NCBI RefSeq assembly: GCF_900129775.1
Contig: NZ_FQWV01000001.1
Location: 579,780-643,779, forward strand
From: Halobaculum gomorrense
Lineage (GTDB): Archaea; Halobacteriota; Halobacteria; Halobacteriales; Haloferacaceae
Direction of reading: 5' to 3'
DNA: 64,000 nt
The position numbers and the translations under genes were made by a program. Position 1 is the stretch's first letter; each line of letters opens with the position of its first letter. Shown here one piece after another: positions 25,756-64,000 of this stretch. The notes below the pieces were generated by a model that was given only the letters and a program-made list of their open reading frames with translations, made no database searches and was not told the DNA's origin.

Positions 25756-25778
25756 CTCCGCTGCGAACGGCGGCGCAG

Positions 25779-25844
25779 CGAGCCGGACGGCCGAGGGCAG
25801 CGAGCCGGACGGCCGAGGGCAGCGAGCCGGACGGCCGAGGGCAG
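25779..25844. repeat. Three perfect tandem copies of a 22-bp GC-rich unit
   Basis: The unit starts CGAGCCGGACGG and ends CCGAGGGCAG. Copies are at 25779-25800, 25801-25822 and 25823-25844, and partial matches continue at both edges. They lie in the 147-base gap between the convergent ATL and rhodanese genes. Confidence 0.9.
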
Positions 25845-25902
25845 CGGGCAGTCACGGGCGCCAGTGGAGCGGGGGGAATCGGGAGTCACGACCGACGCGC
25901 GC

Positions 25903-54332: not shown

Positions 54333-54444
54333 TGGGGCCCTCGACCAGCTACCTATTTAACCACTGACGAGTGATAGCTGCGTGATTGACACATAACCGA
54401 ACGCGCGTGATGGGTTACGCTACCGGTCGACCCTGCCGAAGCGC

Positions 54445-56649
54445 ATGGACATGGTAAGTAGCGCTGCTCTCGCGCACGTCGGCCTGCTCACCTTCTCGGC
54501 AGCGACAACGACCGTGTTAGCGGTCTATGCCTTCCGTCACCGACAGGAACCCGGTGCCACCTGGTTCGGCATGTTGATGCTGTCGTTGACTGTCTGGTCC
54601 GGCTGTTACGGCGTTGGCATCGTCACGTCCGATCCAACCTGGCGTGTGTTCTGGGCGCGCGTGCAGTGGTTCGGCGTCGCGACCATCTACGTCTGGTTGT
54701 TCCTGTTCGCGCTGTCCTACACCGGTCACGACAAGTTTGTCACTCGATGGAACGTCGTCGGGTTCTGTCTCGTTCCGATGCTGGCTATCATCGGCGCGTG
54801 GACGAATCCGTTCCACCACCTCCTCTGGCGTACCGCTCAGGTGAGGGTTGTGGACGGCATCTCGCTGATCGATTTCACCTACGGACCGATTTTTTGGGTG
54901 GACATCATCTACGGTTACGCGTTGATCGCCATCGCAACGGCTCTCTTGCTCCGCCTGGTCTTCCAGTCTGACTATCTCTACACAGACCAGTCGGCGCTCC
55001 TGCTCGTAGGCATCGCCGCTCCGTTCCTCGGGAACGTCGCGGAAAACTTCTTCTGGACGTCCCAACTCGTCATCGACCCGACGCCCCACGCGTTCACGGT
55101 GACCGGCATCACGTTCGGGTACGCGCTCTTCCGGCGACAGCTGTTCGATCTCGTTCCCGCAACCAGACAGCTCGGCCGCAACGCCGCTATCAGTCAACTC
55201 GACACCGGAGTCGTGATCGTGGACAACGCCCGCCGCGTCGTCTACTGCAACTCGGCCGCTGTCAACGTGATCGACAGTGACCCTGCTGACGCGCTCGGTC
55301 GAGAGATCCGGTCGCTCGTTGACAGCGACGTGATCGACTTCGAGGCCGAGGACGCCCTCGCGGAACTCGAAATCGACGAGAGCGTCTACGAGGTCAGAAC
55401 CTCGCCGATCACCGACCAGCACGACCGCCAGATAGGCCACACCCTCGTCATCCACGACGTCACCACCCGAAAGCGGCGCGAACGGGGACTCGCTGCCCAA
55501 CGTGATGAGCTCGCCACCGTCAACGAACTGAACGCGGTCATTCGAGGCGTCAACCAGGCGCTCGTTTCGGCGACCAGCCAGGAAGCCGTCGAACGCGCCG
55601 TCTGTGAGCGTCTCGCCGACTCCGACCTCTACCGGACCGCCTGTGTAGCCGATGTCACCACGTGGACCGGCGACGCCGATCGATGGCTCGTAGCGGGCGA
55701 CCAGGTCGAGTCTACTCCACCCGCACTCGATGACGACGGCATCGAAAGCAGGGCGCTCGAACGTAGCGAGGAGGCGAGAACTCAAACTATCGCACCCGAA
55801 CCGACGACTGGCGACGGTACCTGGGCCATCGTTCCGGTCGTCTACGGTCGTACTGTTCACGGCGTACTCGGCCTCTACACCGACCGCGAGGAGATCAGCG
55901 ACCGCGAGCGAGCGGTCCTTGGCGAACTCGGCGAGATCGTCGGCCACGCCGTCAATGCTGTCGGAATGCGTCAGCTCCTCTCAGCCGAGGCGGTCACCGA
56001 GGTCGAACTCGAGAGCACCGACGACAGCGACTCGCTGGTCGCCGCGTCGGTCTTCACAGAGTGCGACCTCGAACTCGCAGGCCTCGTTCCAGGGGGCAAA
56101 GCGGGTCACGTCGCATACGTCCGCCTCGAAGATGGCGACGTCTCAGCAGTTGCCGACGAACTCGAGTCGTCAGGCGAGGTTCGGTTGATCAGCGATGGCG
56201 AGACTGGCGGTCTGCTCGAATGGCAGGTCACCGGCGATGCGCTCCTCGGGATGCTCGTCGACTTCGGGGCGAACGTCCAGCACGCCACGGTCGAGGATGG
56301 CCGTGCCAGTTACACTCTCGAGATCGCTGCCGGATCGAGCGTCAGGGCACTGATCGACGCGGTCGAACAGCAGTTTCCCGACACGCGGCTGGTTTCGAAA
56401 CGCCAGCGCCCCCGCGCCGTCGAACGTGCCGACACACTTACCGAGCACAGCCTAGCGGATCTCACCGAGCGCCAGGCGGAAGCTTTGGAGGCGGCCTATC
56501 GAGCCGGCTACTTCAGGTGGCCCCGGGACTCCACTGCAGAGGACGTCGCCGCGGTCCTCGACATCTCGGCCCCGACCCTCCACGGTCATCTCAGGAAAGC
56601 CGAGGAACAGATCCTCACCGACCTGTTCGATCCAGAGACGACCGAATGA
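54445..56649 (+). CDS. Membrane-bound 7TM-PAS-GAF-Bat/HTH-10 regulator
   Basis: 734 residues. Residues ~5-225 form seven membrane helices of the histidine-kinase N-terminal 7TM type (GLLTFSAATTTVLAVYAFRH ... HAFTVTGITFGYALFRRQ). A PAS domain (~240-345: LDTGVVIVDNARRVVYCNSAAVNVI ... HTLVIHDVTTRK) and a GAF domain (~365-515) follow. Next is the bacterioopsin-activator domain (~520-665) and a HTH-10 DNA-binding end (LTERQAEALEAAYRAGYFRWPRDSTAEDVAAVLDISAPTLHGHLRKAEEQIL). There is no kinase domain. It would be a one-component, membrane-anchored transcription factor. TATTTAACC at 54352-54360 is a possible promoter. The start is either of two ATGs two codons apart. Confidence 0.9.
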   Translation: MDMVSSAALAHVGLLTFSAATTTVLAVYAFRHRQEPGATWFGMLMLSLTVWSGCYGVGIVTSDPTWRVFWARVQWFGVATIYVWLFLFALSYTGHDKFVTRWNVVGFCLVPMLAIIGAWTNPFHHLLWRTAQVRVVDGISLIDFTYGPIFWVDIIYGYALIAIATALLLRLVFQSDYLYTDQSALLLVGIAAPFLGNVAENFFWTSQLVIDPTPHAFTVTGITFGYALFRRQLFDLVPATRQLGRNAAISQLDTGVVIVDNARRVVYCNSAAVNVIDSDPADALGREIRSLVDSDVIDFEAEDALAELEIDESVYEVRTSPITDQHDRQIGHTLVIHDVTTRKRRERGLAAQRDELATVNELNAVIRGVNQALVSATSQEAVERAVCERLADSDLYRTACVADVTTWTGDADRWLVAGDQVESTPPALDDDGIESRALERSEEARTQTIAPEPTTGDGTWAIVPVVYGRTVHGVLGLYTDREEISDRERAVLGELGEIVGHAVNAVGMRQLLSAEAVTEVELESTDDSDSLVAASVFTECDLELAGLVPGGKAGHVAYVRLEDGDVSAVADELESSGEVRLISDGETGGLLEWQVTGDALLGMLVDFGANVQHATVEDGRASYTLEIAAGSSVRALIDAVEQQFPDTRLVSKRQRPRAVERADTLTEHSLADLTERQAEALEAAYRAGYFRWPRDSTAEDVAAVLDISAPTLHGHLRKAEEQILTDLFDPETTE

Positions 56650-56756: not shown

Positions 56757-58679
56757 CTACTCCCCCTTGACGACTGTGTTGTACTCCTGATAGGTACTCC
56801 CGAGGCCGCCGAACGGGTCGACGGTGACGTCATCGTATGCGAACCGCTCGTCGATCGGGTGATACAGCGGTAAGAGCGCGACGTCCTCCCAGTTCGCCTC
56901 CTCCATCGTGACGTAGGCCGCCTCACGGTTCTGGCGCGCTCGCTCTGTCGGTTCCAGGGAGGATTCGACGCGTTGCCAGGCCCGCGCAGCGGTTTGACTC
57001 GCCGCAGTGCCGCCCCAGTTGAGGTAGAACCCCTCGGGAGACCCGTCGGTCTCGGTCGCCGGCGGGTTGAGGTTCTCGAGGAAGTTATCCGGATTGGGAT
57101 AATCGGGAACCCAGCCAAGGAAGTAGGCGTCGACGTTGCCCTTGTACCCTCGATTGATCAGGGAACTGAAATGCGTCTCCTCGTACCGCAAGTCGATGTG
57201 GGCGGCAGCGAGTGTGTCCTGCAGCCGCTGGCCGATTTTCTTGTTGACCGATGAACTGTAGGACGTCAGCGTGAACTGGTACCGATTGCTCGGACCGTAG
57301 CCCGCATCTTCCATCACACGACGGGCCGCTTGCAGCTCTGCTGCATCGTAGCTGTACGGATATTCACTGTCCGCGTGCGACTGGTAGCCGCCGTGCGGAT
57401 AGATCGGGGGTGGTGTGAGGTGGGCCGCGGGTGTGGCGCGCGTATTCAGGGCTCGATTGACGGCCCACTGCTGATTCAGCCCGTAGGCCATGGCCACGCG
57501 TACGGGCTTGTGGACCCTGTTCGTGTTGAACCCGATGTAGAACGTTTGCGCCAACGGCGCAGAGAGGTACGAGACCGTCTCGCCGTTCTCCATCGGGCCG
57601 TACTCGCCGAACCGACGGCCGCTATCGTCCGTTTGCGCGATGCGAACCCGCCGCGGGTCGTACTCCGCGTCCGGCACGGTGACGAAGTCCGCGTTCCGGT
57701 TCTGCCCGTAGTTGTACGCGGCTGTCGAGTCTGTGAGGACCCGCCATCGGATGCCGTCGAGGTCCGGGGCGGTCCCGTGGTAGTCGTCGTACCGCGTGAC
57801 TGTGACCTCTTCGGTCTTGTTCCAGTGCTCGAAGACGAACGGGCCGCTCCCGATTGGACTTTCCGCGAAGCTCTGATAGGACATCCGGCCGACGTAGCCA
57901 TCGATGTCCCCGACGATGCCTTCTGGAACGATTGCGAACGCCGGATGCGCGAGTAGCTCGAGCGCCGCAAAGTTCGGTTTGGCCAGCCTGAAGCGAAGTG
58001 TGGTATCGTCGACCGCTCGCACGGCCATCGAGCCCGGAACGTACCCTCCACCGGTGAAGCCGTGCGCTACGTTGAGATACTCAAGAAGGTAGTACGCCCT
58101 GCGGGAGTTGTCGGATGCCGCGAGCCGCTCCCACGAGTAGACGACGTCCGAGGCGGTAACCTGCGAGCCGTCGTGGAACGTGGCCCCTTCCCGGAGCGAT
58201 ATCGTGTAGGTTCGTCCGTCAGCCGAGATGGTAACATCTGTCGCGAGTTGGAGCTCCGCTGTGGTCTCCCCGTTCGGGAACGTCGTCAGTCCGTCGAAGA
58301 GATTCTCGAGGACTGCCATCGAGGATGAGTCAGTCGCAGCGATGGGATCGAGCATCGTGAGCGTCCCGCTCGTCAACTGGAGTGTTCCCCCCATCCGTTG
58401 TTGGGGCTTCGAGGTCGGTGTCGCGGCAGCCGATGTCGTGGTATTCGACGGTGCGTTCGAAGGCGCGGGCGTGTCGTCCCGTGTCGTCGTCTGCATCGGC
58501 ATGCCGGTCGTCTCCACCGCCGGTGAATCGCCGTCGTCGTTTTCGAAGTCGACTTCGACCCCGTCCTCGGTCGTTCTGACGGTACATCCTGCGAGCCCTG
58601 TCGCGACCGCGGACGCACCGATCACCGACAGGAAGTGGCGTCTCCCCACCGAAGACCGGGACCGGTCATCAGCAGGCAT
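56757..58679 (-). CDS. Tat lipoprotein: peptide/nickel-type ABC substrate-binding protein (SBP_bac_5)
   Basis: 640 residues. The N-terminus has twin Arg and a lipobox: GRRHFLSVIGASAVATGLAGC. A Thr/Ser-rich linker (~30-95) leads to an SBP_bac_5 domain: LDPIAATDSSSMAVLENLFDGLTTFPNGETTAELQLATDVTISADGRTYTISLREGATFHDGSQVTASDVVYSWERL is the family's hallmark opening. PYPxNFLENL-like DYPNPDNFLENLNPP and the ending MEEANWEDVALLPLYHP also fit. Family members bind oligopeptides, Ni or opines. No permease or ATPase gene is near, so it is an orphan. A GGAGGT lies 7 bases before the ATG. Convergent with the Bat-type regulator. Confidence 0.93.
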   Translation of the reverse strand: MPADDRSRSSVGRRHFLSVIGASAVATGLAGCTVRTTEDGVEVDFENDDGDSPAVETTGMPMQTTTRDDTPAPSNAPSNTTTSAAATPTSKPQQRMGGTLQLTSGTLTMLDPIAATDSSSMAVLENLFDGLTTFPNGETTAELQLATDVTISADGRTYTISLREGATFHDGSQVTASDVVYSWERLAASDNSRRAYYLLEYLNVAHGFTGGGYVPGSMAVRAVDDTTLRFRLAKPNFAALELLAHPAFAIVPEGIVGDIDGYVGRMSYQSFAESPIGSGPFVFEHWNKTEEVTVTRYDDYHGTAPDLDGIRWRVLTDSTAAYNYGQNRNADFVTVPDAEYDPRRVRIAQTDDSGRRFGEYGPMENGETVSYLSAPLAQTFYIGFNTNRVHKPVRVAMAYGLNQQWAVNRALNTRATPAAHLTPPPIYPHGGYQSHADSEYPYSYDAAELQAARRVMEDAGYGPSNRYQFTLTSYSSSVNKKIGQRLQDTLAAAHIDLRYEETHFSSLINRGYKGNVDAYFLGWVPDYPNPDNFLENLNPPATETDGSPEGFYLNWGGTAASQTAARAWQRVESSLEPTERARQNREAAYVTMEEANWEDVALLPLYHPIDERFAYDDVTVDPFGGLGSTYQEYNTVVKGE

Positions 58680-58686
58680 CGAGCGT

Positions 58687-58692
58687 ACCTCC
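58687..58692 (-). promoter_or_regulatory. Shine-Dalgarno site deciding the start of the SBP gene
   Basis: Read on the minus strand, GGAGGT is followed by 7 bases and the ATG at 58677-58679. It supports this start over the 88 codons of open frame upstream and implies a leadered mRNA, unlike most genes in the window. Confidence 0.7.
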
Positions 58693-58858
58693 AGTCGTGA
58701 TGTATCGCTCGGGATCGGTCGCTCGCCAAACACACTCGTTGACAGTCGTTCGAACGGGTCGGTCAGTCGACGCCCGGAGCGTCGAACGTTGCGAAGTAGT
58801 AGTTGACATCTAACGTGTCCCTCGCCATCACGTGGTGACAGGTATCGCTTGGTACACC

Positions 58859-58950
58859 ACGCTACGTGGTTAGTGTCGCAACTGCCGAGCACAGCTCGAC
58901 CACGTTCGGGAGTCGGCTCGAATAGTAGCAAGATACTAACCACGTAGCGT
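58859..58950. promoter_or_regulatory. 16-bp perfect inverted repeat between two divergent lipoprotein genes
   Basis: ACGCTACGTGGTTAGT at 58859-58874 is repeated in inverse as ACTAACCACGTAGCGT at 58935-58950, 60 bases apart. A third related word, ATCACGTGGTGAC, lies at about 58838-58850. All share the ACGTGGT core. The right arm is about 36 bases before the start at 58986, where a promoter should be. The 306-base gap 58680-58985 contains no gene. Operator function for both divergent genes is inferred. Confidence 0.5.
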
Positions 58951-58985: not shown

Positions 58986-60512
58986 GTGTTCAACCCAGGC
59001 GAATTCCGCAGACGCGACTTCCTTTCTGGCCTGTCGGTCCTCGGAGCGACATCGCTTGCCGGCTGCTCAGACGTGACGAACCAGCGATTCGAATCGACTC
59101 CAGTCGAGTTACCGCGTTCCGATCAGGACGGGCTGCTACTGAGTGAAATCGCGAGTGACTCCAGGAGTGTTTCTCGAACTGGCCCGAACGGTGACCTCGA
59201 AATCACCGTCACCAGTCACTTCGCGTCCTACAGCAGAGCGGAGGGAGTCGCTGACAACGGCACGGTACGAACGGCGGTCGGGCAGTACGTGGCGGACCTG
59301 AACGGCGGGCGACTCGGGGCCGGAGCGACGCTCACGTCCGCGACCGACCTCGTCTCGAAGAGTCAACCTCTCCCCGTCTTCGGATCCGACGTCGAGATCG
59401 ACCCCGAAGCGATCGCCCTGTTCGCACCCGCAGGATTGCGCACCGACGCGACCGGGGACCCCATTTCGGTGTTCAGTGGGGCCGCTATCGAGCGAGAGAC
59501 GATCCGACTCGGCGAGCTGGGAGGTGTGAGCGCGTACGTCGTCCCGGGGCGAAACTTCTTGCCGGGGAGTATGTGGACGACGGACGAGGAACTGTATCCG
59601 GGGAGCATGTGGTATCCGGGGAGCATGTGGTATCCGGGGAGCATGTGGATCGCAGAGACTGGCTGGTATCCGGGGCGGACCTGGGTCCCCCCCACCCAGA
59701 ACGCGGGTGCTGAAACGGACGCCGGGACGTCCTCCCAGCAGGAATCGGTCCCGGCTCCGGCGCTCGTATTCTTACCGGAGGGTCGGTCGTTCGCCGAGGT
59801 CTTCGGTGTGGACCTCGCCTCGGTCGGCGGGCGTTCCGTCGAGCCCGGAGAAACGTTCGACGTGCAAACTCTGACCGTCGCGAGCGTCGGGAATGCGCTC
59901 TTCAGTTGGGAATTCCCCGACGAGTACGGAGTGCTGTTCAGAGACGGCCGGCCAGCCGCGCTCGCGGGTGCCGTATTCGACTTGGCCGTCCTCTCCACCC
60001 CGTCGGCGTCGATCGCGGGTGTCGAAGCAAACCCGATCGTGTCGATGGATTCGGAAACGCTGTTGACCGCTGACACCACTCGACGGCTCCTCCGAAATGC
60101 GGGAGTTTCTGACGCGGACGACGTTCGATGGGTCGACGGACCGAAACGACTCTCCCCGGAGGGCTATCTCTCGCTCGATGCGGAGATTGCCGACAACGTA
60201 CCTGAATCGCTGACGGGATTGGAGCCGACGATCTTCGACGAGACGACGACTATCGAGACGTACGCGGGCGTGCTCAGCGGCCGGAGTGGACAGTGGGCCG
60301 TCGGCATTCATATCGCACGCGCGACCCCGGGCGATCACGTGATGGCTATCGGTACGCAACGGGCACCGCTGGAATCTGCCGGTGGGGTCACCGACGGAGA
60401 AGAAACGGAACCGCCGATACCGTTCCCGATCATCTCCTGGAAAAATTGGTATCTCGATGCCCGAGCGATGATGCAGGTCGTCGTGCCTCGCCTCACCGAG
60501 CGACGGGATTGA
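58986..60512 (+). CDS. Tat lipoprotein with tandem YPGSMW repeats (possibly DUF6517-like)
   Basis: 508 residues from GTG 58986; a TTG at 58977 is the alternative start. The N-terminus has RRRDFLSGLSVLGATSLAGC, a Tat signal with lipobox. Around residues 192-233 is a Trp-rich repeat: five copies of a six-residue unit (consensus YPGSMW), three of them perfect at DNA level. The flanking domain starts VSAYVVPGRNF and resumes with APALVFLPEGRSFAEVFGV. The C-terminal half (FDLAVLSTPSASIAGVEANP, WAVGIHIARATPGDHVMAIG) resembles lipoproteins I recall as DUF6517; unverified. It is divergent from the SBP lipoprotein and followed by a membrane protein gene. Confidence 0.85.
   Translation: MFNPGEFRRRDFLSGLSVLGATSLAGCSDVTNQRFESTPVELPRSDQDGLLLSEIASDSRSVSRTGPNGDLEITVTSHFASYSRAEGVADNGTVRTAVGQYVADLNGGRLGAGATLTSATDLVSKSQPLPVFGSDVEIDPEAIALFAPAGLRTDATGDPISVFSGAAIERETIRLGELGGVSAYVVPGRNFLPGSMWTTDEELYPGSMWYPGSMWYPGSMWIAETGWYPGRTWVPPTQNAGAETDAGTSSQQESVPAPALVFLPEGRSFAEVFGVDLASVGGRSVEPGETFDVQTLTVASVGNALFSWEFPDEYGVLFRDGRPAALAGAVFDLAVLSTPSASIAGVEANPIVSMDSETLLTADTTRRLLRNAGVSDADDVRWVDGPKRLSPEGYLSLDAEIADNVPESLTGLEPTIFDETTTIETYAGVLSGRSGQWAVGIHIARATPGDHVMAIGTQRAPLESAGGVTDGEETEPPIPFPIISWKNWYLDARAMMQVVVPRLTERRD
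59559..59684 (+). repeat. 18-bp coding repeat array in the YPGSMW lipoprotein gene
   Basis: Perfect tandem copies of TATCCGGGGAGCATGTGG at 59595-59612, 59613-59630 and 59631-59648. Diverged copies are at 59559-59576 (LPGSMW) and 59667-59684 (YPGRTW). Each unit encodes six residues. Confidence 0.92.
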
Positions 60513-60607: not shown

Positions 60608-60955
60608 ATGCCGCGAAGCTGGCAGGTCGTGTTTCTGGGGTTCCTCGCCCAGTTAGCGGTCGGTGGTGTGATGCTCGGTTCGGAGATGACCGGCACGCCG
60701 GAGAACGCGAGCACCATCGTGCGCCTCGTTCTCGGCGGAGGCATCCTCGTCGTGACCGCGGCAGCGTTCCTCGTGACACTCCCCGCGATCTATCTGTTGT
60801 ATCGCGGATCGTACCGGCTCGTTGCGACTACTATCGTAACCATTGTTGGGGCGGTGTTCCTCGTCGGCAGTATCGCATCCCCGGTTGTCGCGGTTCTACC
60901 CGCGTTTCTGTTCATCGGCATAGTACTGTCGTGGCGTGAACGGACAAGCTCCTGA
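60608..60955 (+). CDS. Small membrane protein downstream of the repeat lipoprotein
   Basis: 115 residues from ATG 60608 with four hydrophobic stretches: VVFLGFLAQLAVGGVMLG, IVRLVLGGGILVVTAAAFLVTLPAIYLLY, LVATTIVTIVGAVFLVGSIA, and PVVAVLPAFLFIGIVLSW. The tail is short and charged (RERTSS). No family is recognised. It is 95 bases after the lipoprotein stop on the same strand and may be co-transcribed. A GTG five codons upstream is an alternative start. Confidence 0.72.
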   Translation: MPRSWQVVFLGFLAQLAVGGVMLGSEMTGTPENASTIVRLVLGGGILVVTAAAFLVTLPAIYLLYRGSYRLVATTIVTIVGAVFLVGSIASPVVAVLPAFLFIGIVLSWRERTSS

Positions 60956-61067
60956 TCTCCGTCTGTCTCCGTTAGTTACCCTGCTTCCGGAGGCAGCCCA
61001 GCGTCTTGCGGAGTTGGCGGCTCTCGATCCGCCAGGCGGTCCCCACCGTAGACGACCACCAACACGG

Positions 61068-61128
61068 TGACATCCTCCTCGCGGTACACGGCGAGGCTTC
61101 CCGTCCCGCAGGTGGGGTATTTGCTGGT
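61068..61128 (-). ncRNA. Probable right end of the TnpB element with reRNA-type hairpin
   Basis: On the minus strand, just after the TnpB stop, GGGAAGCCTCGC...GCGAGGAGGATGTCA forms a 6-bp stem (CCTCGC/GCGAGG at 61077-61096) followed by GGATGTCA. This matches the hairpin plus GAGGATGTCA end that I recall for haloarchaeal IS200/IS605-type elements, where the 3' region becomes the TnpB guide (omega/reRNA) scaffold. The guide would start at about 61067 and read leftward. Likely non-functional with a dead TnpB. Confidence 0.5.
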
Positions 61129-61920
61129 CTACGAAACGACCTGTTCTCTCGTTTTGAACGTCCCGCTCTCGTGGTCGAACAAGTGTGTCGATGGCTGTGC
61201 CACACAGGCGTTACTCTATCCTCGCCGTGAGGACTCGGAGTTATCTTCTGCCTCATATTCTCCGCCCCGTTGCAATCCGCGTTCCCGACCAACCCACACG
61301 ACTGGCAGACGTACAACCCACGCTCAACACGGTTCGCTTTCGTGTCGTCGCCACACTGTGAACACGTCTTCGAGGTGTTTTCCACTCGTTGTCTTTCAGT
61401 ACCTCGACACCACGAATCTCACCCTTGTATTCGAGGTACTGGTAGATGCGGTCGAAGGCCCACGTATGGAGTTTCTTATTGCCTGTCTTTCCCCAGTCGG
61501 ACTCTCGCACGTCTTCGGGCCAACTCACCGCGAGTGTGCCCACACCGCGTTCGACACACTCTGTGATGATGGTGTCTGAGAGGGCGTGGTAGAAGTGGGT
61601 CTCACGGTCTGCGAGTTTCTGACGCGCCCACATCGACCTCTCAGACGGGCCGTTCTCACCTTCCGTGTCGTACTCAGCACGCTTGAAGTAGTGCTTGTCC
61701 TGCTTGAGCGAGTTACCGGGGTAGAGAACGTATTCGTCTGGGAACACGACCGTAGCGAATTTGTGATCCCGAGGTCAATACCGGCCACTTCGTCACCTAC
61801 TGAGTCGTTTGTTTCGAGTTCGACTTTACAGACGAAGTGGCTCTGTTGGAATCCTTCAGAGTTGACATTGGGAACAGCTACTCTCCCCACCGGTTTTCGT
61901 CGGTACGGTTGGAAACTAGC
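61129..61920 (-). pseudogene. tnpB: TnpB of an IS200/IS605 (IS1341-type) element, truncated and frameshifted
   Basis: Four in-order pieces in changing frames. Piece 1 (61920 to ~61765): FQPYRRKPVGRVAVPNV ... DEVAGIDLGIT, with the first RuvC Asp. Piece 2 (~61765 to ~61385): ATVVFPDEYVLYPGNSLKQ ... VERGVGTLAVSW ... NKKLHTWAFDRIYQYLEY. Piece 3 (61385 to ~61215): SKTCSQCG ... YVCQSCGLVGNADCNGAEN, the zinc finger and last RuvC Asp. Piece 4: NACVAQPSTHLFDHESGTF ending KTREQVVS at 61129. At least three frameshifts separate them, and the N-terminal half of TnpB is missing; a stop lies in frame just upstream of 61920. The order and conservation imply recent decay. No TnpA gene is present. Confidence 0.88.
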
Positions 61921-62329: not shown

Positions 62330-64000
62330 TCAACTCCTCCGTGTCGCGAGTACAGCCACGCTCAGCAACGCAAGCACGGCCCCGACCACTCCGAATCCAG
62401 GTCCGGCTGTCGATGTCTCACTCCGACCTGACTCGGACGAAGTCGTGCGTGTGTCCGTTTCGGACTGAGCCGTGCTGGGTCGTTCTGTTGGTGTCTCCGA
62501 AGGCGATGGGGACTCTGTGGGCGTTGCATTTGTCGTTGTAGCCTCTGGCGTAGCAGTCGACCTCGGTGTCTCAGGCGTAACGGTTGCGGTCACCGCACTC
62601 CGATTCTCTGTGATTGATTTCGACGAGGTATTGGTAGATGAGCTCGGCGCTGTGTCACTCGGCGATCCAGATGTGTCGGAGTCATCACTCTCACTCGGCG
62701 ATCCAGATGTGTCGGAGTCATTACTCGAGTCTGTATTCGATGATGAACTATCGGTATTCACGTCGTCGCCCGTGTTCGGCGACGTATCCGATGGACCGCT
62801 ACTGTCGGTCGTCTCATTCTCACTCGTTCCGGATACAGCGGGCTGGATAGACACGGTTCCCGCGGAGTAGTGGATCGGTATCTCGACCACTATCCCACCG
62901 CTTTCGTTCTGTGCCGAGATACTGGTTGAGTTCCCAGCGTATGCTGCTGTCAGCGCCCCCGGATCGGTGACGCCCCACGAGGACAGTAGCGAACCTGGCA
63001 GAAAGGCCTCATAATACCCCTCATTGACTGTTTCACCATCCGGTTTGAAGTGCGGGCCAGCCACGAGCAAGGACAGCTTTGGCTCCGTTAAGGCACCACC
63101 CGATTGGTACTCAAGTTGGCCGAAGGTCTGTGCGTCAGTCATGATGATCGTCCCGTTGAACCGCTCGCGTGGCTCCGTCGACGTGGCGTACTGATCCATC
63201 GGATCGAACGCGAGGTCAACGGTTGCGTTTCGGTGGAAGGTCGCTGTGTCATCGGCGCCGGTCGGCCACGCACCGAGGCGCGCACCCTCAACCAGATCGA
63301 ACTCCGACGCGGTCACCTTCACGACGTGCCGCGTGTGGGTACTGTTGATCGTCGTCCGATTCCACGTCGCGTTGTGCCCTGTCCCGATCAGCACCGGTGC
63401 CGAGAAGTTCTGTGTCACGAGCTCGACACGGAACCGAGTCTGTGTGGTTGCGTTCGTCGTATCAAGGCTGCTCCCAGCCTGCGTTTTCAGGCTTCCTTGG
63501 AGCATGTTTGCATCAAGCCCCAGGTCTGCGACGATCTCGGACTCGGGACACGGACCGGCGATACAGGTCACGTTCGAGGACGCCACAACCGGTTCACGAA
63601 CAGTCAGATTCGCCGTTCGGTCGCCAAGCATCACTGTCCCCGCATCAACTCGTTCGGGGAACTGCACGAGCCAACCCACGGATTTCTGTTCGGTCGAATT
63701 CACGGTCCGGTTCCAGCTCCCGAGGACAGTCCCGTTCCAGACGACCGTCTGGTTTGCAAATCCCTTCGCATCTCCGAGATTGTGAGCCGTCGCAGCGAGG
63801 AACGTCTCCTCACCGACGACTGCAGTCACGTTGGTGCCCACATTGGTCAGGGCGATGTGTGTCCCATCGGCGAGGGCGAACCCGGTCGTCCGTGTTCCAT
63901 CTGGGAGCAACAGGTCGAAGCGGTTCGGGTTCGGCGCGGTAACATTGAGTTGGACCGTCTTCACCGTGTCTCCCGGAACAGTGACGGTCGTACTGTTGGA
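62330..64000 (-). CDS. PGF-CTERM surface glycoprotein (partial, N-terminus beyond window)
   Basis: 556 residues visible; the frame runs off the right edge. The ectodomain is beta-rich and packed with N-glycosylation sequons (NVT, NQT, NGT, NRT, NST, NAT, NLT, NFS) and has one Cys pair (VTCIAGPCPES). A Thr/Ser/Asp/Pro-rich stalk of about 150 residues follows, with a 12-residue repeat SDTSGSPS. The end is AGPGFGVVGAVLALLSVAVLATRRS: the PGF motif, membrane helix and basic tail of archaeosortase A (ArtA) substrates. The mature protein would be cleaved, lipid-anchored and probably O-glycosylated on the stalk. Ligand or role unknown. Confidence 0.9.
   Translation of the reverse strand, partial: SNSTTVTVPGDTVKTVQLNVTAPNPNRFDLLLPDGTRTTGFALADGTHIALTNVGTNVTAVVGEETFLAATAHNLGDAKGFANQTVVWNGTVLGSWNRTVNSTEQKSVGWLVQFPERVDAGTVMLGDRTANLTVREPVVASSNVTCIAGPCPESEIVADLGLDANMLQGSLKTQAGSSLDTTNATTQTRFRVELVTQNFSAPVLIGTGHNATWNRTTINSTHTRHVVKVTASEFDLVEGARLGAWPTGADDTATFHRNATVDLAFDPMDQYATSTEPRERFNGTIIMTDAQTFGQLEYQSGGALTEPKLSLLVAGPHFKPDGETVNEGYYEAFLPGSLLSSWGVTDPGALTAAYAGNSTSISAQNESGGIVVEIPIHYSAGTVSIQPAVSGTSENETTDSSGPSDTSPNTGDDVNTDSSSSNTDSSNDSDTSGSPSESDDSDTSGSPSDTAPSSSTNTSSKSITENRSAVTATVTPETPRSTATPEATTTNATPTESPSPSETPTERPSTAQSETDTRTTSSESGRSETSTAGPGFGVVGAVLALLSVAVLATRRS
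62655..62721. repeat. Two 31-bp direct repeats in the stalk of the PGF-CTERM gene
   Basis: Identical 31-bp words (TCACTCGGCGATCCAGATGT then GTCGGAGTCAT) at 62655-62685 and 62691-62721, period 36 bp or 12 codons. They encode the repeated SDTSGSPS stalk unit. Confidence 0.9.

What the first reader, a model, noticed from the sequence alone, without database searches (positions are those of the whole stretch)
58986..60512. Tat lipoprotein with tandem Trp-rich YPGSMW hexapeptide repeats
Five copies of a six-residue unit (consensus Y-P-G-S-M-W), three with identical 18-bp DNA, sit in the middle of an exported lipoprotein between two otherwise ordinary domains. Trp and Met are rare in haloarchaeal proteins, so a Trp-Met array exposed on the cell surface is unusual. 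Identical DNA units mean recent expansion by slippage or recombination, i.e. copy number may vary between strains. Possible roles are a carbohydrate- or aromatic-ligand binding ladder, or a protein-protein docking strip.
Basis: partly seen in the sequence, partly recalled or inferred. Interest (0 to 1): 0.62.

Follow-up and report, generated by a model that had tools for sequence, protein, structure and literature searches.

The report
Archaeal lipoprotein with conserved peptide arrays
A surface lipoprotein of salt-loving archaea carries a short tandem peptide (YPGSMW) in a flexible loop inserted into a known but unstudied domain; relatives carry arrays of different peptides, often with the peptide kept while synonymous codons vary, which points to selection on the peptide itself, probably as a multi-copy binding site.

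Summary
The array is real: LPGSMW-TTDEEL-(YPGSMW)3-IAETGW-YPGRTW, window 59559-59684, in a Tat lipoprotein gene (GTG start 58986). The two flanks are not separate ordinary domains. They are the halves of one DUF6517 domain (predicted LpqN/PsbP/Mog1-like fold), split by a ~235-residue insert that carries the array.

Four orthologs (71-80% identical; G043, two Haloferax, a Halomicroarcula) keep the array with 4-6 units. In most, the units encode the same peptide with scrambled synonymous codons, so the peptide is selected and old. Only the window gene and G043 look clearly homogenised at the DNA level.

Distant relatives carry other arrays in the same insert or in other loops: FPGETY, IPGSTW, FPGDSF, FPDGYF, TGNNPF, DRHGPMR. 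For TGNNPF, 14 units in four genomes give pS 0.80, pN 0. Among 392 haloarchaeal genomes, the two array types searched by pattern occur only in this gene family, apart from singletons at control level.

A 115-aa membrane protein follows the gene in all five loci; a 7TM-PAS-GAF-BAT-HTH10 regulator is adjacent in four loci. Most likely role, inferred and untested: an extracytoplasmic adaptor whose loop is a multivalent docking strip for its membrane or signalling partners.

The parts
58986..60512 (+). CDS of the array lipoprotein, 508 aa, GTG start (mechanical ORF starts at TTG 58977)
   Evidence: start codon aligned with GTG/ATG in four orthologs
59007..59066 (+). Tat signal (RRRDFL) and lipobox LAGC
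   Evidence: direct reading of the translation
59067..59237 (+). N-terminal part of the DUF6517 core (approximate end)
   Evidence: profile A2 positions 6-95 match the N part of ~220-280 aa DUF6517 proteins
59238..59945 (+). insert of about 235 residues inside the DUF6517 domain (approximate ends)
   Evidence: short DUF6517 proteins run from N part to C part directly; Pfam matches L020 contiguously, the window protein only from profile position 71
59559..59684 (+). hexapeptide array LPGSMW-TTDEEL-YPGSMW-YPGSMW-YPGSMW-IAETGW-YPGRTW
59946..60509 (+). C-terminal part of the DUF6517 core (VLSTPxASxAG..NP motif)
   Evidence: Pfam PF20127 E 3.2e-7
60384..60440 (+). second low-confidence loop, where homologs carry other repeats (TGNNPF in L007, KGDTTL in L006)
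60608..60955 (+). 115-aa predicted membrane protein, directly downstream also in the four orthologs (81-87% identical)
56757..58943 (-). divergent SBP_bac_5 (oligopeptide-type) lipoprotein; probable start near 58680 before its own Tat signal; also beside the two Haloferax orthologs
54397..56646 (+). 7TM-PAS-GAF-BAT-HTH_10 membrane regulator
   Evidence: Pfam; adjacency; co-occurrence
58862..58947 (.). inverted repeat CTACGTGGTTAGT (58862-58874) / ACTAACCACGTAG (58935-58947), conserved upstream in the window and three of four orthologs

Best explanation
The gene encodes a Tat-exported, lipid-anchored extracytoplasmic adaptor. Its DUF6517 core is interrupted by an insert with an exposed loop. 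Within the loop, one conserved FPxxxW element has been amplified into tandem identical peptides that act as a multivalent docking strip for a partner, most plausibly the membrane or signalling proteins encoded beside it (the 115-aa membrane protein and the 7TM regulator). Shown: array, insert, orthologs, peptide conservation despite synonymous change, neighbours. Inferred: lipid anchoring, loop exposure, binding, the partner, multivalency.
For: Array peptide kept in the window gene and four orthologs, in genera of two families. Units of one array, pS/pN: H. profundi 0.85/0.05, Halomicroarcula 0.93/0.07; TGNNPF in four genomes 0.80/0.00. FPxxxW position (P196, W200 of P0001) conserved also in relatives without an array. 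Array and C-terminal loop low-confidence in a model whose core is mostly above 70. Tandem PG[ST]xW and TGNNPF arrays restricted to this family in 392 genomes, apart from singletons at control level. Membrane protein downstream in 5 of 5 loci; regulator adjacent in the window, G043, G346 and distant G286; regulator homolog in 7 of 24 family genomes against 0 of 20 congeneric controls, Fisher P 0.011.
Against: No binding partner was tested. Without the four linked loci, regulator co-occurrence is 3/20 against 0/20 (P 0.23). G391 (H. profundi) and G321 (Halomicroarcula) hold orthologs of the array gene but no regulator match at E 1e-100. Low pLDDT does not prove disorder. Strong constraint could be structural rather than for binding. 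Relatives without arrays (G212, G185, G223, G328) are intact, so arrays are dispensable to the core.
Confidence: 0.42

Rival explanations
1. Structural solenoid: each unit is a rung or turn of a small stacked element in the insert domain, and peptide identity is kept because the units pack against each other.
For: Strict period of six, aromatic residue at the last and usually the first position and P-G/P-D turns in array types of both main clades; FPxxxW ancestral; copy number fixed at ten in G100/G300.
Against: Array modelled at pLDDT 27-43 in the window protein and unresolved in the long form; copy number varies 4-6 between orthologs; period-seven TGNNPF arrays occur in the same family.
Confidence: 0.27
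2. Recent slippage or unequal recombination with little function: the array is a neutral, unstable minisatellite in a tolerant loop.
For: Three identical 18-mers; codon identity in the window gene and G043 above expectation (P<0.001 and 0.003); copy number 4-6.
Against: pN well below pS in most arrays, synonymous scrambling in most orthologs, one-to-one units between species.
Confidence: 0.08
3. Precursor of short peptides: the array is cut by an extracellular protease into identical hexapeptides that act as signals, taken up or sensed by the neighbouring oligopeptide-type SBP and 7TM regulator.
For: Tandem identical peptides that differ between lineages resemble multi-copy pheromone precursors (general knowledge); SBP_bac_5 and the 7TM regulator are neighbours.
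Against: No conserved cleavage spacer between units; array embedded inside a folded domain; SBP adjacent in three of five close loci only; no processing enzyme recognised nearby.
Confidence: 0.1
4. Ligand ladder: the stacked Trp/Tyr residues bind carbohydrate, aromatic compounds or (Met/Trp) copper.
For: High Trp and Met content of this version.
Against: Met is absent from most other array types, and TGNNPF and DRHGPMR lack Trp; no carbohydrate or metal genes among the few neighbours examined.
Confidence: 0.08

Closest known systems
DUF6517 (Pfam PF20127)
   Same: C-terminal part matches above the curated cut-off in the window protein; N part recognisable by profile; Tat lipoprotein architecture
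   Different: canonical members are about 220-280 aa without the ~235-residue insert and array; no paper on it in the library searched
LpqN / MTC28 / PsbP / DcrB / Mog1-like fold
   Same: models of two distant family members give the same top PDB matches (LpqN E 0.022 and 1.4e-3)
   Different: no sequence similarity found; weak TM-scores; none of these carries a tandem peptide array to my knowledge
Left-handed beta-helix hexapeptide repeats (from general knowledge)
   Same: period of six residues
   Different: consensus [LIV]-[GAED]-x2-[STAV]-x against aromatic-P-G-x-x-aromatic; no helix predicted; not a member

Membership tests
DUF6517 (PF20127) | match above Pfam gathering score | tested here: met
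   31.0 bits against 23.9, C-terminal part only
DUF6517 (PF20127) | contiguous domain over the profile | tested here: not met
   domain interrupted near profile position 70 by the insert; L020 lacks the insert and matches 3-163
LpqN/PsbP/Mog1-like fold | fold similarity of the core | tested here: inconclusive
   best E 0.022 for the window protein and 1.4e-3 for a homolog; probability 0.93-0.99, TM-score low
Tat lipoprotein | twin-arginine motif followed by lipobox cysteine | tested here: met
   RRRDFL...LAGC by reading; processing not tested
Left-handed beta-helix hexapeptide | [LIV]-[GAED]-x2-[STAV]-x repeat | tested here: not met
   unit is YPGSMW by direct comparison; Pfam lists no hexapeptide repeat
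Peptide pheromone precursor | proteolytic release of the repeated peptide | not testable with these tools
   needs mass spectrometry

The most novel reading that the evidence does not exclude
A haloarchaeal lipoprotein family uses lineage-specific short peptides, repeated in one or several loops of the same protein and held constant while codons drift, as a recognition code matched to a partner that co-evolves with it. The same peptide can sit at different positions in different homologs (TGNNPF in the middle of G259/G293/G273, at the C-terminus of G286).
Probability: 0.2. Interest if true: 0.78.

Novelty: new variant of a known kind. Interest (0 to 1): 0.5.

Why it matters
DUF6517 has no known role that I could find and no paper in the library searched. 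The arrays give it a handle: the conserved peptide can be used as bait, and the neighbours name candidate partners. If the peptides are recognition sites, the family would be a natural series of swapped peptide vocabularies on one scaffold, useful for studying how archaeal surface proteins and their sensors co-evolve.

Tried and rejected
General recent slippage: rejected by codon and one-to-one tests. General selection for codon scrambling: arrays of G100/G300 have fewer identical codons than expected (P 0.015, 0.045) and GC3 of about 0.44 against about 0.75, but the two are close relatives and most other genomes do not show it, so it is not claimed. Programmed frameshift in the split homologs: direction differs (+1 in L006/L008, -1 in L011-L013), so coupled ORFs are preferred. 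Phage or plasmid carriage of the gene: no match in phages, plasmids or viral contigs (the viral scan used only two array peptides as patterns). Sequence relatives among solved structures: none convincing (E 0.067). Long-form structure: insert not resolved. Literature: nothing on DUF6517 or such repeats.

Full report
Observation. The window encodes, at 58986-60512 on the + strand, a 508-residue protein with a Tat motif (RRRDFL) and lipobox (LAGC). The mechanical ORF begins at TTG 58977, but GTG 58986 aligns with GTG or ATG in four orthologs. Between 59559 and 59684 lie seven hexapeptides, five of them of the PG..W type and three with identical DNA. The protein has 13 repeated 4-mers against a shuffle mean of 3.2 and maximum of 11.

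Architecture. Pfam places DUF6517 on the C-terminal part only (E 3.2e-7). A profile of 15 homologs (A2) shows that ordinary DUF6517 proteins of about 220-280 aa match its positions 6-95 and then 307-436 with little between. G363, at the same syntenic locus as three long homologs, has no insert and matches Pfam contiguously. So the array lies in an insert of about 235 residues that splits one domain. AlphaFold2 with 15 sequences gives mean pLDDT 71; the array (198-258 in P0001 numbering) and a C-terminal loop (470-488) are below 50. Foldseek on this model and on a second model of a distant homolog gives the same top families, LpqN, MTC28, PsbP, EagT6/SciW, DcrB and Mog1. E-values are weak (0.022 and 1.4e-3), so this is a lead rather than a membership. 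No ladder was predicted; the long form was not resolved.

Orthologs and selection. Orthologs at 71-80% identity occur in G043, Haloferax profundi, H. elongans and Halomicroarcula SYNS111, and in no other of the 11 species of the window's genus examined; 3 of 170 genomes of the family, the window's own included, have this version. The array has 4-6 units. Nei-Gojobori counts between units give pS 0.55-0.93 and pN 0.05-0.15 in the four orthologs, and 0.29/0.12 in the window. A simulation from each gene's own codon usage shows that units are homogenised in the window gene (29/32 identical-codon pairs against 11.6, P<0.001) and G043 (35/55 against 20.1, P 0.003), weakly in H. elongans and G115 (P about 0.04), and not in H. 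profundi or Halomicroarcula. Thus the peptide is old and constrained, with some recent DNA turnover in individual genes. These tests treat units as comparable columns and do not correct for shared ancestry, and the unit patterns were written by eye after seeing the sequences.

Other arrays in the family. Distant homologs (about 27-32% identical) carry FPGETY, IPGSTW, FPGDSF/FPGDAF, FPDGYF, TGNNPF, DRHGPMR, KGDTTL or MWSDAPT repeats in the same insert or other loops. TGNNPF: 14 units, four genomes, pS 0.80, pN 0; the pattern itself fixed the six residues, but a whole-genome search with that pattern found it in no other gene of these genomes. In G100 and G300 ten units correspond one to one (0.5 nucleotide differences per unit against 4.1-4.5 between units). 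Four relatives have no array. The position FPxxxW is conserved also there, which suggests amplification of a pre-existing element. A tree of the C-terminal part gives two main clades with PG/PD-type arrays in both; TGNNPF carriers do not form one resolved group. In 392 genomes, tandem PG[ST]xW matches occur in seven family genomes plus six singletons in other places, similar to the reversed-pattern control; tandem TGNNPF occurs in three genomes, all in this gene.

Neighbourhood. A 115-aa membrane protein follows the gene in all five loci (81-87% identical to the window's). The 7TM-PAS-GAF-BAT-HTH_10 regulator is adjacent, or one gene away with the SBP between, in the window, G043 (79-80%), G346 (about 40%) and G286 (58%), the last carrying TGNNPF repeats. 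Homologs at E 1e-100 occur in 7 of 24 family genomes and 0 of 20 congeneric controls (P 0.011); without the linked loci P is 0.23. The controls were chosen by hand from the same genera. An SBP_bac_5 lipoprotein is divergent in the window and both Haloferax. A perfect 13-bp inverted repeat lies between the divergent genes and is conserved upstream in the window and three of four orthologs. GC falls from about 0.70 to 0.49-0.66 after 53000, consistent with an acquired block.

Interpretation. The best-supported reading is an extracytoplasmic adaptor whose loop offers several copies of one peptide to a partner. What is shown is constraint on the peptide, its placement in an inserted loop, and the linked genes. 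Binding and its partner are inferred. A structural solenoid is the main rival. Membership in DUF6517 is met by score but with an interrupted domain; hence a new variant of a known family.

Noticed in passing
L006, L008, L011, L012, L013 at the start of the insert: In five homologs the N part and the insert plus C part are separate ORFs with stop and ATG overlapping or 1 nt apart (TGATG, TAAGATG, TGAGATG), at the insert boundary; the second ORF has no signal peptide, so it may be exported with the first by Tat or be read by recoding.
   Followed up: partly
L021 and L018 arrays (G100, G300): IPGSTW array codons have GC3 of about 0.44 against about 0.75 in the rest of the gene, with fewer identical codons than expected; unexplained.
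   Followed up: partly
L076: A DUF6517 domain at the N-terminus of a long ORF (1120 aa) that contains HEVQH, a possible HExxH metalloprotease motif.
   Followed up: no
window 60972-61890: Apparently broken TnpB (OrfB_IS605 and Cas12f1-like TNB matches in different frames) next to the array cassette.
   Followed up: no
window 62655-62726: 36-bp tandem repeat, 97% matching, in the Ser/Asp-rich stalk of a PGF-CTERM surface protein.
   Followed up: no
window 25775-25846: 22-bp unit, 3.3 copies, 100% identical.
   Followed up: no
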